The notes beneath the pieces are model-generated. The model did not search any database and was not told the origin of the DNA. It saw only the letters and a list, made by a program, of their open reading frames with translations. From positions 445,286-509,285 of the forward strand of contig NZ_LT964739.1 in the NCBI RefSeq assembly GCF_900240265.1: DNA of 64,000 nt. The letters are read 5' to 3'. This DNA comes from Galactobacillus timonensis (GTDB taxonomy: Bacteria; Bacillota_I; Bacilli_A; Erysipelotrichales; Erysipelotrichaceae). The translations under genes and the position numbers were made by a program. Positions 1,644 through 64,000 of the stretch are shown here, piece by piece; position 1 is the first letter of the stretch; each line of letters begins with the position of its first letter.

Positions 1644-2297
1644 TCACCGAACCGGAAAACTCTCAAGGAACGTAATCATCTGATCCAGATGTCCCGTAAA
1701 CAGCAGAACCAGAATAATAATCGTCAGAAAAATGAACCATGCACGCGCAAATGCACGGACATTGACATTCCGCGGCACAAACGAGAAAAACAGCAGAAGC
1801 AGCGCATGCAGAAGAGGTCCGCTGATCGACAGCACCGTCTTCCAGATACCGCTGACAGCACCGCTGTAGAACTTCACCAGAAGCGCACCAATGACATACG
1901 GCAGAAAGCTTAATAACAGAAGATAAATCAGATAGCCCCACATGGAAATCGGACGATAGCGGCGCGGAAGATCCTTGATTTCCTTCTGGCGCTGCTCCTT
2001 TTCCGAAAGCTCCTGCGGCTGCGAAGAGATCTCTGCCTCCTGCGGCTCCTCTGGCGTCGTTGGCGGCACTGGCGCAGACTCACTCACCGGCGCCACATGA
2101 ACCGTCACCTCTTTCGTCTCCACCGGCTCCGGGTCCTTGTGCAGCGCCATGATGGAAATACCATCATTTTCTTCCTTCACACCGGTATCCGAAGAAGCAT
2201 CTTCCACAGCTTCCGGCACACGTTCCAGCTTCGCACCGCAGTTTGCACAATACAGTGCCGTCTCTTTATTTTCAAATCCACATTGCGGACATTTCAT
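1644..2297 (-). CDS. Zinc-ribbon membrane protein
   Basis: A 217-residue protein beginning with a double-CxxC zinc ribbon (CPQCG at 3-7, CANCG at 17-21), followed by a long acidic/proline-rich linker (about 25-115) and three hydrophobic segments near residues 120-142, 150-175 and 186-206. This zinc_ribbon_2 plus membrane layout is common in Bacillota and is not tied to one biochemical role. The start has an AAGGCAGG ribosome-binding site. The gene is single, between the HTH gene and ybaK, both on the same strand. No catalytic motif is visible, so it stays a predicted membrane protein of unknown function. Confidence 0.75.
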   Translation of the reverse strand: MKCPQCGFENKETALYCANCGAKLERVPEAVEDASSDTGVKEENDGISIMALHKDPEPVETKEVTVHVAPVSESAPVPPTTPEEPQEAEISSQPQELSEKEQRQKEIKDLPRRYRPISMWGYLIYLLLLSFLPYVIGALLVKFYSGAVSGIWKTVLSISGPLLHALLLLFFSFVPRNVNVRAFARAWFIFLTIIILVLLFTGHLDQMITFLESFPVR

Positions 2298-60222: not shown

Positions 60223-60252
60223 TTGCCTGAGTCATGAATGCATACTTATAAT
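60223..60252 (+). promoter_or_regulatory. Promoter of the Tat operon
   Basis: TTGCCT (60223-60228) and TATAAT (60247-60252), 18-base spacer, 31 bases before the first tat gene. The upstream 200 bases (60030-60220) hold no gene that I can support. Confidence 0.65.
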
Positions 60253-60283: not shown

Positions 60284-60586
60284 ATGAGGATAGGCTTCTG
60301 GGAACTGATCGTTATTTTAATTGTCGCCCTGCTCGTGATCGGGCCGGACAAACTGCCGGAAACGATGCGTGAACTGGGCAAAGGACTGCGGGCCATGCAG
60401 AATGCTGCAGGCAAGCTCAGCGACAGCATCTCTCTGGATGATGATGACGTTCAGCCGAAAAAGGAAACGATGGCAAAGAAAGACACCTGGATCTGCCCGA
60501 AATGCGGTGAAAGAAATACGGGACATTTCTGTGCCAACTGCGGAACCGCTAAGCCTGTTGCTGATGTGAAGGAGGAATCGCTATGA
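60284..60586 (+). CDS. TatA/B-like protein with C-terminal zinc ribbon
   Basis: A 100-residue protein. The N-terminal TatA/B module has the short transmembrane helix, FWELIVILIVALLVIGPDKLP (6-25, split here as FWELIVILIV and ALLVIGPDKLP), with the F/G-P-x-x-L-P hinge and an amphipathic helix (TMRELGKGLRAMQNAAGKL). An acidic linker leads to a double-CxxC zinc ribbon (Cys71, Cys74, Cys83, Cys86). AAAGG lies upstream of the ATG at 60284. A zinc ribbon on a Tat component is not part of the standard family. It is first of a four-gene Tat operon and overlaps the second gene by 4 bases. Confidence 0.85.
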   Translation: MRIGFWELIVILIVALLVIGPDKLPETMRELGKGLRAMQNAAGKLSDSISLDDDDVQPKKETMAKKDTWICPKCGERNTGHFCANCGTAKPVADVKEESL

Positions 60587-60801
60587 GAATCGGTGCACCT
60601 GAACTGTTAATTATTCTGCTTATTGTGTTGGTCCTTTTTGGTCCGCAGCAGCTTCCTAAGCTGTCGAAGATGTTTGGTAAGAGCGTCAAGAACTTCAAGG
60701 AAGGCATGAAGGAAGAGGACCAGGAGGAAGCTGAAAGCGTCAAGGTTGAAGCTGCAGCCGCAAAGAAAGCTGAAGCGGTCAATTCGGAAAACAAGGCTTG
60801 A
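60583..60801 (+). CDS. tatA: Twin-arginine translocase subunit TatA
   Basis: A pore-forming Tat component of 72 residues. The opening MRIGAPELLIILLIVLVLFG is followed by PQQLPKLSKMFGKSVKNFKEG (hinge plus amphipathic helix) and a charged Ala/Glu/Lys tail. GAAGGAGG supports the start. It is the second, plain TatA copy of the operon, next to the zinc-ribbon version, so the system has two TatA/B-like proteins and one TatC. Confidence 0.94.
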   Translation: MRIGAPELLIILLIVLVLFGPQQLPKLSKMFGKSVKNFKEGMKEEDQEEAESVKVEAAAAKKAEAVNSENKA

Positions 60802-60804
60802 ACA

Positions 60805-61569
60805 ATGTCTGACCTGTCATCTTCCGAAAATGGCACAATGACCCTTCGCGGCCACCTCAGAGAGCTTCGGAAGCGGATCATCATCTGTGCCATTGCTTTT
60901 ATTGCTGGCTTTCTGATCTGTTTTTCGTTTGCCCGCCAGATCATCACAGTACTCACCGACATGGGTACAGGGTACGGCTACCACTTCATCTACCTGGCTC
61001 CTCAGGAGCTGCTGATGGTCTACTTCAATGTTGCAATGCTGGGTGGACTGATTATTGCGCTGCCGGTGATTGCTTCTGAGATCTACCAGTTTGCAAAACC
61101 CGGTCTTTCCAGCCAGGAGACGCGTTCCTTTTTTTGGTCTCTTGTGTTCGGTGCCATCTGCTTTGTGATCGGCATTCTCTTTGCCTACAAGATCTCTTTG
61201 CCCTTCATGCTGTATTTCCTGATTTCATTTGGTGCCGACGGAGTGATACACGCTTCCATCAGTATTCAGGAATATCTGAGTTTCGTCCTTACCGTTTTTA
61301 TTATCTTCGGCTGTGTTTTTGAAATGCCGGTGATATCTGTTCTTCTCGCCCGCCTGGGGATCCTGAAACCAGAATGGATGCTTAAAGGAAGAAAAGTGGC
61401 TATTGTGATCATCTTCGTGGTCGCCGCCATTATTACCCCGCCGGATGTAGCGAGTCAGATCCTTGTCGCGGTGCCAATGATTGCCCTTTACGAGATCAGC
61501 ATTGCACTGGTCCGCATGTTCTATCAAAAGCATGCTGCTGAAAAATCCGATGCCGCGGAAAGCGAATAA
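60805..61569 (+). CDS. tatC: Sec-independent translocase subunit TatC
   Basis: A six-helix receptor of 254 residues that binds the twin-arginine signal. Conserved parts are LRGHLRELRKRIIICAIAF at the N-terminus, the periplasmic LAPQELLMVYFNVAMLGG and PVIASEIYQFAKPGLSSQE (with the conserved E and P), and FEMPVISVLLARLGI. The acidic residue contacting the RR motif is in the N-terminal H-L-R-E-L-R-K-R segment. It is third in the operon, immediately after tatA. Confidence 0.96.
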   Translation: MSDLSSSENGTMTLRGHLRELRKRIIICAIAFIAGFLICFSFARQIITVLTDMGTGYGYHFIYLAPQELLMVYFNVAMLGGLIIALPVIASEIYQFAKPGLSSQETRSFFWSLVFGAICFVIGILFAYKISLPFMLYFLISFGADGVIHASISIQEYLSFVLTVFIIFGCVFEMPVISVLLARLGILKPEWMLKGRKVAIVIIFVVAAIITPPDVASQILVAVPMIALYEISIALVRMFYQKHAAEKSDAAESE

Positions 61570-61613
61570 GCAGCTGCCCAATAATTCATTCGTGAGAGGA
61601 GAAGAAAAATAAC

Positions 61614-62603
61614 ATGGATGAGAAAATGATTTCCCGCAGAGACTTCCTGAAGGGACTGGGAGCCGGTGTCATCAGCGTTGCGGCTGTCGGAACCCTTGCA
61701 GGCTGCTCCACCGCTAATGCCAATGCGGCCGCTTCCGCAACCCCGGAATCCACTTCAGAAGCGGCGGCTCCTGCCGCCCCAACGCATCCCTTTGCCTGGC
61801 ATGAGCTCGACAAAGACAAGGTTCAGGAGATCGGCTTCGATGGCTTCTACAACCTGAACGGCTGTGCCCGCGGAACATTCAATGCGATCGTCGGTCAGAT
61901 GGCAGATCTGTATGGCTATCCATACAACCAGATCCCGACGCAGATGTTCTCGAATGGCCACGCTGGCTACACCACAGGTTCCCTGTGCGGATGCCTTGGT
62001 GGAGCATGTGCCGCGATCGGTCTCTTTGTTGATCCAAAAGATCAGGATGCGATCGTTAAGGAACTTGAGGACTGGTACAGCAACACAGAGTTCCCGATTT
62101 ATCAGCCGAAGATGGAACTTATCACGACCGTTTCCCACAGCGTAAACTGCTCCGATTCCGTTGGAACCTGGATGGCTGCGGCTGGTGTCACGGACCGCAG
62201 CGATGAAAGACGCCAGGCACGCTGTGCAGGTCTCGTCGCCGATGTTGCAAAGAAGACAGTGTCTCTTCTGAATGTTTACTTCGGTCTCGAAGAGCCGGAA
62301 GCTACAGCCGCTCCTACCGAAGAAGCACTGGCAGATAACGAATATGTAGCGAGCGCCCAGGGCATGGATGGTGATGTCAAGGTTAAGGTCACCATGGATA
62401 ATGGCGCAATCTCCAATGTCGAAGTTCTCGAACAGAATGAAACCGCCGGCATCGGCACCAAGGCTGTTGACGAACTTCCGTCCAAGTTTGTAGGCATGTC
62501 CACTGCCGAAGAAATCGACTCTGTTGATGCGGTCTCCGGTGCAACGATCACCAGCAACGCCATCAAGGAAGCTGTCAAGAGCTGCCTCCTGCAGGTGAAA
62601 TAA
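61614..62603 (+). CDS. Tat-exported lipoprotein with C_GCAxxG_C_C-like and FMN-binding domains
   Basis: A protein of 329 residues encoded 44 bases after tatC. A twin-arginine signal SRRDFLKGLGAG (7-18) leads into the lipobox LAGC (Cys31), so it is a Tat-dependent lipoprotein. The central domain has scattered cysteines (84, 125, 127, 132, 179, 204) in the pattern of the C_GCAxxG_C_C redox family. The C-terminus is an FMN-binding domain with DAVSGATITS (305-314); Thr313 is the likely flavin attachment site. No ApbE flavin transferase is nearby. Being in the tat operon, it is the probable dedicated substrate and an extracellular electron-transfer protein. Confidence 0.85.
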   Translation: MDEKMISRRDFLKGLGAGVISVAAVGTLAGCSTANANAAASATPESTSEAAAPAAPTHPFAWHELDKDKVQEIGFDGFYNLNGCARGTFNAIVGQMADLYGYPYNQIPTQMFSNGHAGYTTGSLCGCLGGACAAIGLFVDPKDQDAIVKELEDWYSNTEFPIYQPKMELITTVSHSVNCSDSVGTWMAAAGVTDRSDERRQARCAGLVADVAKKTVSLLNVYFGLEEPEATAAPTEEALADNEYVASAQGMDGDVKVKVTMDNGAISNVEVLEQNETAGIGTKAVDELPSKFVGMSTAEEIDSVDAVSGATITSNAIKEAVKSCLLQVK

Positions 62604-62624
62604 CGCATTCGTTTCATTTTCTTG

Positions 62625-62648
62625 ATCCGGGTTCGTCCCGGATTTTTC
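62625..62648 (+). terminator. Terminator of the Tat operon
   Basis: Stem ATCCGGG / CCCGGAT with loop TTCGT and a following T-run (62643-62647). Confidence 0.9.
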
Positions 62649-63863: not shown

Positions 63864-64000
63864 ATCGAGTAGGAGGCGGTGATTAACCGCCGTCCTCTCA
63901 CACCACCGTACGTGCCGTTCGGCATACGGCGGTTTCAGTACTTAGAACACAAGTTGCAGTTGAACTGCAGAATATTTAGGATGAACAGACTCGAAGTATC
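63864..64000 (-). mobile_element. 3' end of a group II intron (partial)
   Basis: On the minus strand the intron ends ...CTCCTACTCGAT at 63864. Domain V is recognisable as a hairpin CCGCCGTATGCC / GGCACGTACGGTGG (63932-63902), the conserved GCCGTATGC...GCACGTACGGT of bacterial group II introns. It is followed by domain VI, GAGGACGGCGGTT / ACCGCCTCCTAC with a bulged A. The rest of the intron, including most of its reverse transcriptase, lies beyond the right edge. The exact 3' junction is inferred from the usual A-Y end. Confidence 0.8.
63935..64000 (-). CDS. C-terminal fragment of the intron-encoded reverse transcriptase (partial)
   Basis: The last 21 codons before TGA 63937-63935 encode ...FNCNLCSKY, consistent with the end of a group II intron maturase, and the stop lies just upstream of domain V, as expected. 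The fragment is too short for independent identification; the call depends on the adjacent domain V. Confidence 0.4.
   Translation of the reverse strand, partial: DTSSLFILNILQFNCNLCSKY

What the first reader, a model, noticed from the sequence alone, without database searches (positions are those of the whole stretch)
60284..62603. Self-contained Tat operon: zinc-ribbon TatA, TatA, TatC and one flavolipoprotein substrate
A TatA/B-like protein ending in a four-cysteine zinc ribbon is not a standard Tat component. The operon ends with a single Tat-signal lipoprotein combining a Cys-rich redox domain and an FMN domain with the SGATIT attachment motif. The zinc ribbon lies on the cytoplasmic side and could check cofactor loading or recruit the substrate. 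This looks like a dedicated export line for one extracellular electron-transfer protein.
Basis: partly seen in the sequence, partly recalled or inferred. Interest (0 to 1): 0.75.

Follow-up and report, generated by a model that had tools for sequence, protein, structure and literature searches.

The report
Zinc-finger Tat operon with flavo-iron-sulfur cargo
A Firmicute-type bacterium carries a small protein-export operon in which one exporter part has gained a zinc finger, and whose last gene makes a surface electron carrier with a flavin domain where its relatives carry hemes; both variations look real, but the job of the zinc finger is untested.

Summary
Window 60284-62603 is a compact operon: a TatB-like protein with a C-terminal four-Cys zinc finger, TatA, TatC and a twin-arginine lipoprotein.

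In Clostridia, 10 of 16 heme-less cores examined lie within 3 kb of tatC (6 groups at 70% identity); in 3 of those a separate FMN_bind lipoprotein gene follows tatC, and in a tat-less locus a triple-FMN gene precedes the core. Best reading: Tat exports the folded iron-centre protein, which is lipid-anchored and flavinylated outside.

The zinc finger is invariant in 39 ribbon-bearing clusters (11 groups at 70% identity; two named Solobacterium), but absent from the other 81 of 120 clusters listed and from 113 TatA/B-like frames in surveyed Clostridia loci, so this cargo class does not need it. 'One substrate only' could not be tested: the window's genome is not held. New variant of known kinds; the ribbon's role is unproven.

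The parts
60223..60252 (+). promoter-like site upstream of the operon (TTGCCT-18-TATAAT)
   Evidence: 4 such sites found against 2.6 +- 1.6 in shuffles, so weak
60284..60586 (+). TatB-like protein, 100 aa: membrane helix, amphipathic helix, linker, C-terminal zinc finger
60488..60553 (+). zinc finger (residues 69-90, WICPKCGERNTGHFCANCGTAK)
60583..60801 (+). TatA, 72 aa
   Evidence: TIGR01411 64.9 bits over cut-off 53.9
60805..61569 (+). TatC, 254 aa
   Evidence: TIGR00945 200.7 bits over cut-off 132.7
61614..62603 (+). cargo: twin-arginine lipoprotein, split-Soret-type core plus FMN_bind domain, 329 aa
61632..61706 (+). Tat signal SRRDFLK (residues 7-13) to lipobox LAGC (Cys31)
   Evidence: read from sequence; PF10518 18 bits, under cut-off 22.7, TIGR01409 21.2 bits, over cut-off 16.7; RR in 31 of 32 relatives, lipobox by my pattern in 18 of 32
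61791..62285 (+). split-Soret-type core (residues 60-224), Cys84, 125, 179, 204
   Evidence: 1h21 E 1.4e-24, fold match 2.6e-12, Cys invariant in 32 of 32
62343..62591 (+). FMN_bind domain (residues 244-326), expected attachment Thr311 at 62544-62546
   Evidence: 8p2b E 1.1e-10, fold match, Ser/Thr at 311 in 32 of 32
62624..62644 (+). terminator-like hairpin after the operon
   Evidence: 2 found against 2.7 +- 1.7 in shuffles, so placement only

Best explanation
The operon encodes a TatB-TatA-TatC exporter together with a cargo of a kind that is genomically tied to Tat: a lipid-anchored electron-transfer protein with an iron centre in a split-Soret-type core and a covalent FMN in a C-terminal domain. 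The core needs its metal centre before export, so it folds in the cytoplasm, crosses by Tat through its SRRDFLK signal, is lipidated at Cys31 and is then flavinylated at Thr311 by an ApbE enzyme outside the membrane. The flavin module takes the place of the two-heme tail of split-Soret cytochromes. The zinc finger on the TatB-like protein is a conserved add-on of one group of bacteria on the cytoplasmic side, most likely a small protein-docking module that gathers Tat parts or cargo at the membrane. Shown: gene order, domain identities, conserved ligands, genomic linkage, ribbon conservation. Inferred: metal and FMN content, export route, order of events, electron partners, docking role.
For: Core and FMN domain by sequence and fold; ligands and flavin site invariant in 32 relatives. 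Heme-type relatives: in 37 of 40 fetched loci the core is followed by CxxCH-like motifs. Heme-less cores: tatC within 3 kb in 10 of 16, six groups at 70% identity; a separate FMN_bind gene close by in 4 of 16, directly after tatC in 3 of them, three groups. Of the 43 of 299 genomes with a core, 10 have one within 5 kb of a listed tatC (compared by eye). The three heme-less cores with no Tat signal (L180-L182) have no tat gene in about 10 kb. Ribbon.
Against: No iron, FMN or export was measured. Of the 60 best-scoring TatC places in Clostridia only 2 have a core within 5 kb, so Tat there mostly serves other cargo. No fused core-FMN protein was found in the surveyed loci, nor beyond model position 220 in 391 genomes. 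Lipobox by my pattern in 18 of 32 relatives. NF047622 is matched far below its cut-off (148 against 400 bits). Ribbon role: no direct evidence.
Confidence: 0.6

Rival explanations
1. Private export line: the zinc finger recognises this cargo or checks its cofactor, and the Tat operon serves only this protein.
For: Same operon; ribbon strictly conserved; nearest folds are protein-binding fingers, at low Z; a second likely ribbon-cargo pair by shared contig length; few Tat-signal hits in 12 relatives with the core.
Against: The same cargo class is tied to tat loci without any ribbon; the link of ribbon to cargo is seen in the window plus one inferred case; the window's genome could not be searched.
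Confidence: 0.15
2. Ordinary general Tat operon: it serves several substrates, the cargo gene is merely the resident one, and the zinc finger is a neutral or stabilising tail of one bacterial group.
For: Zinc-ribbon tails on membrane proteins are common, one more lies in this window (1644-2297); a closely similar tatB-tatA-tatC set in Oribacterium has neither ribbon nor this cargo.
Against: Invariant W, Cys, Pro, Phe and Gly in 39 clusters argue against a neutral tail; heme-less cores lie by tat genes far more than chance would give.
Confidence: 0.3
3. The cargo works in sulfur or selenium compound redox, not in electron transfer to an extracellular acceptor.
For: Sulf_transp-TusA-Sulf_transp and a LysR gene adjoin the heme-less core in 6 loci (L109 by Pfam; L110, L116, L214, L215, L216 by eye); the core is probably a selenoprotein in 11 loci.
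Against: No such genes are recognised by eye near the window's operon (not scanned by profile); the window's protein has Cys, not an in-frame TGA.
Confidence: 0.3

Closest known systems
Split-Soret cytochrome c, Desulfovibrio desulfuricans ATCC 27774 (PDB 1h21; NCBIfam NF047622)
   Same: Core over residues 60-224, all four motif Cys aligned; Tat signal; same fold.
   Different: Match ends before the chain's last 56 residues, where the hemes sit (recalled); FMN_bind domain instead; below the family cut-off.
C_GCAxxG_C_C family (PF09719, TIGR01909)
   Same: Over the PF09719 cut-off (48.8 against 27 bits); the four Cys.
   Different: Longer, exported, fused to FMN_bind; TIGR01909 below cut-off (18.9 against 47.4).
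ApbE-flavinylated FMN_bind proteins (8p2b, RnfG, NqrC)
   Same: FMN_bind over cut-off with the D-x2-SGAT motif.
   Different: Fused to a split-Soret core and carried by a Tat signal; the terms PF09719, C_GCAxxG and Tat or twin-arginine do not occur in the two survey papers (passage searches).
TatABC translocase
   Same: tatB-like, tatA and tatC in one operon.
   Different: TatB-like protein short (100 aa) with a zinc finger; below the TIGR01410 cut-off.
NZF / RanBP2-type zinc fingers
   Different: Cys pairs closer together (NZF spacing recalled); Pfam 15.6 bits against cut-off 27.

Membership tests
Tat translocase (TatABC) | TatC over curated cut-off | tested here: met
   TIGR00945 200.7 against 132.7 bits
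Tat translocase (TatABC) | TatA over curated cut-off | tested here: met
   TIGR01411 64.9 against 53.9 bits, second gene
Tat translocase (TatABC) | TatB over curated cut-off | tested here: not met
   First gene TIGR01410 50.6 against 56.5 bits; over PF02416; called TatB-like only
Tat substrate | twin-arginine signal at the N-terminus | tested here: met
   SRRDFLK; TIGR01409 21.2 bits over 16.7; PF10518 18 bits, under 22.7; RR in 31 of 32 relatives
Tat substrate | TatC-dependent export | not testable with these tools
   needs an experiment
Split-Soret cytochrome c (NF047622) | score over the curated cut-off | tested here: not met
   147.8 against 400 bits
Split-Soret cytochrome c (NF047622) | core fold with four motif Cys | tested here: met
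   1h21 E 1.4e-24, Foldseek 2.6e-12, Cys in 32 of 32
Split-Soret cytochrome c (NF047622) | two c-type heme motifs after the core | tested here: not met
   no CxxCH in the window protein (sequence); present in 37 of 40 fetched relatives' loci
FMN_bind (ApbE substrate) | domain over cut-off with Ser/Thr attachment site | tested here: met
   71.4 against 22 bits; Thr311, Ser/Thr in 32 of 32
FMN_bind (ApbE substrate) | covalent FMN; ApbE in the same genome | not testable with these tools
   genome not held; ApbE in 5 of 5 relatives searched
NZF/RanBP2 zinc finger | Pfam model over cut-off | tested here: not met
   PF00641 15.6 against 27 bits
NZF/RanBP2 zinc finger | fold | tested here: inconclusive
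Dedicated single-substrate Tat line | no other Tat substrate in the genome | not testable with these tools
   genome not held; in the 64-kb window the cargo is the only credible one of 12 rows of a relaxed scan

The most novel reading that the evidence does not exclude
TatB of one group of Firmicutes has gained a strictly conserved zinc finger that acts as a cytoplasmic docking or gating module, and this group's Tat line is centred on a heme-to-flavin version of split-Soret cytochrome c: an iron-centre core whose electron outlet was exchanged from c-type hemes to ApbE-attached FMN, in cis (window) or in trans (L109, L214, L215, L217), in organisms that probably lack cytochrome c maturation.
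Probability: 0.25. Interest if true: 0.7.

Novelty: new variant of a known kind. Interest (0 to 1): 0.5.

Why it matters
It makes two questions testable. Does anything on a TatB tail select cargo? Ribbon and ribbon-less TatB of one type exist and can be swapped. Can a redox protein change its electron outlet from heme to flavin by exchanging a module? The heme-tail form, the fused FMN form and the two-gene form all occur in related bacteria. It also sets a little-known flavo-iron-sulfur protein family, probably a selenoprotein in many Clostridia, beside tat and sulfur-transport genes, which gives leads to its function.

Full report
What is there. Searches confirm four genes in one direction at 60284-62603, overlapping by 4 bp or 3 and 44 bp apart, with a terminator-like hairpin after the last. 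By eye the neighbours are unrelated: a HAD-type hydrolase on the minus strand before, a phosphofructokinase-like gene after, then a group II intron RNA match at 63864-63934.

The exporter. The second and third genes pass curated cut-offs for TatA/E and TatC. The first lies between TatB and TatA (50.6 and 49.8 bits, both under cut-off), so I call it TatB-like. Its AlphaFold2 model (mean pLDDT 65) shows a membrane helix, an amphipathic helix, a disordered linker and a small folded finger at pLDDT about 84. The nearest solved folds are mostly NZF and RanBP2 fingers, at low Z, up to 3.4.

The ribbon. In the first search 6 of 88 clusters have the four Cys. A profile search listed the best 120 of 635: 39 with the ribbon, all at 152 bits or more, and 81 without, all at 118 or less (the six of the first search are among the 39; the 515 unlisted were not seen). 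In the 39, W, both CxxC pairs, P, F and G do not vary; they form 13 groups at 90% and 11 at 70% identity, and 26 of them are one group, whose two members with an organism name are Solobacterium (that this genus is in Erysipelotrichaceae is recalled). Oribacterium (G001, through L001) has tatB-tatA-tatC in the same order, without ribbon and without this cargo beside it. The ribbon profile matched 50 of 299 genomes of Oribacterium's phylum at E <= 1e-12, Oribacterium's own being far the best. No four-Cys ribbon was found in any of 113 TatA/B-like frames in the loci L049-L128 and L149-L217.

The cargo. SRRDFLK and a lipobox, then a core that matches split-Soret cytochrome c (1h21) at E 1.4e-24 over residues 60-224, then an FMN_bind domain that matches 8p2b at E 1.1e-10 over 244-326. 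The model (mean pLDDT 85.5) finds the same two structures by fold. In 32 aligned proteins (the window's and 31 of the 120 listed of 391 found) the four Cys and the flavin Ser/Thr do not vary; twin arginine in 31, Arg-Lys in one; a lipobox by my pattern in 18, so the lipid anchor is not general. [quoted passage not shown] that the four Cys hold iron here is by homology.

Heme and flavin outlets. NF047622 matches 43 of 299 genomes at E <= 1e-5, none over the curated cut-off. I fetched 40 loci from 34 of these genomes and read them with five earlier loci from five more; four of the 43 genomes were not read. In 37 of the 40 the core is followed by CxxCH-like motifs 16-23 and mostly 33-43 residues on; one gene in L176 at a contig end has only the first, three genes of L178 have a CxxxCH or CxxxxCH second motif, and a fourth gene of L178 has none. 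The other three (L180-L182) have no heme motif and no Tat signal. The five earlier loci (L086, L103, L109, L110, L116) have no heme motif. A second sample, 391 genomes of the class searched with A2 at E <= 1e-40, gave 7 more. One search checked all: 16 genes with a core and no heme motif (L086, L103, L109, L110, L116, L180-L182, one in L178, L211-L217), none of them fused to FMN.

Neighbours of the 16. tatC within 3 kb in 10: L086, L103, L109, L110, L116, L212-L216, with gaps of 59 to 2885 bases; these are six groups at 70% identity. No tatC in the fetched stretch: L180-L182 (no signal), the L178 gene, L211 and L217. An FMN_bind gene lies close in four: directly after tatC in L109, L214 and L215, where it has its own lipoprotein-like signal, and just before the core, with three FMN domains, in L217 (for L109). 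The two domains fused in the window are thus neighbours in the same cluster elsewhere, a usual sign of shared function. Signal variants: of the 10 with tat genes, two have Arg-Arg, seven Arg-Lys and one (L110) Arg-Gly. L103 was first met through a TatC place, but its core is also.

Against a general rule. Of the 60 best-scoring TatC places (59 genomes) only L086 and L103 have a core within 5 kb. Comparing the listed coordinates by eye, 10 of the 43 genomes with a core have one within 5 kb of a listed tatC; the TatC list was cut, so this is a lower bound. Among heme-type loci five (L149-L153) were picked because tatC is near; of the other 32, five have a tatA-like gene alone (L167, L168, L169, L173, L174). 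So Tat in these bacteria mostly serves other cargo, while signal-bearing heme-less cores are mostly found by tat genes.

Number of Tat substrates. Not countable for the window's genome. In the window a relaxed scan gave 12 rows; the cargo is the only one with an SRRxFL motif in a credible gene (judged by eye). In the 12 genomes G235, G057, G096, G169, G066, G400, G422, G454, G501, G559, G571 and G629, TIGR01409 at E <= 10 gave 23 hits, 0 to 5 a genome, 7 over the cut-off; seven of the 23 are the core itself, and the core is missed in five genomes. This hints at few substrates and proves nothing for the window.

Other features. In 11 of the cores of those 12 genomes the first motif Cys position is an in-frame TGA, most simply selenocysteine; G629 has Cys, as has the window. 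A C-GCAxxG-C-C selenoprotein is listed in PMC9312934 (one table passage seen). Six loci carry a Sulf_transp-TusA-Sulf_transp set and a LysR gene beside the core (L109 by Pfam; L110, L116, L214, L215, L216 by eye). ApbE is present in 5 of 5 genomes searched.

Mechanism. Tat carries folded proteins, often with cofactors put in beforehand, and ApbE attaches FMN outside the cytoplasm (both recalled). A split-Soret diheme cytochrome is in a list of Tat substrates of Shewanella oneidensis (PMC3623810, one passage). Electron donor and acceptor of the window's protein are unknown. The role of the ribbon is inference: strict conservation, a fold class that binds proteins and a position on the cytoplasmic side (topology recalled) favour docking.

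Literature, in the open-access library only. 'TatA' + 'zinc ribbon' + 'twin-arginine': 0 papers; 'TatB' + 'zinc ribbon': 0; 'split-Soret' + 'Firmicutes': 0; 'split-Soret' + 'FMN-binding': 1, in which the passages shown are separate gene lists; 'Erysipelotrich' + 'twin-arginine': 6, none on this subject by title and abstract start. PF09719 and Tat or twin-arginine do not occur in two flavinylation surveys (passage searches of PMC8238504 and PMC11334425). This is weak evidence of absence.

Verdict. The solid new content is the ribbon TatB as a conserved variant of one group, and a flavin-for-heme version of the split-Soret protein tied to Tat. The private-line idea stays open.

Noticed in passing
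window 63864-63934 (-): Group II intron RNA end (Rfam RF00029, 46 bits) right behind the phosphofructokinase-like gene, running off the window.
   Followed up: no
window 1644-2297 (-): A second membrane-type protein with a zinc ribbon, here at its N-terminus (MKCPQCG...CANCG), seen by eye.
   Followed up: no
L109, L110, L116, L214, L215, L216: Sulf_transp-TusA-Sulf_transp genes and a LysR regulator sit beside the heme-less, probably selenocysteine-bearing core and tat genes; an unexplained lead to sulfur or selenium metabolism.
   Followed up: partly
L214 8725-10098 (+), L215 3226-4569 (-), L216 4907-6244 (-): A protein of about 450 aa with a heavy-metal-binding-like N-terminus (GMxCxxC, by eye) next to the same clusters.
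   Followed up: no
L167, L168, L169, L173, L174: A tatA-like gene without tatC lies near a heme-type split-Soret gene, as if these had their own TatA.
   Followed up: no
L113, L120, L126: Two tatC-like genes or frames side by side in one locus; one search shows both on one open frame of 565 aa in G222.
   Followed up: no
L178 4636-8884 (+): Four split-Soret-type genes close together in G212; three have a CxxCH and a CxxxCH or CxxxxCH motif, one has no heme motif.
   Followed up: no
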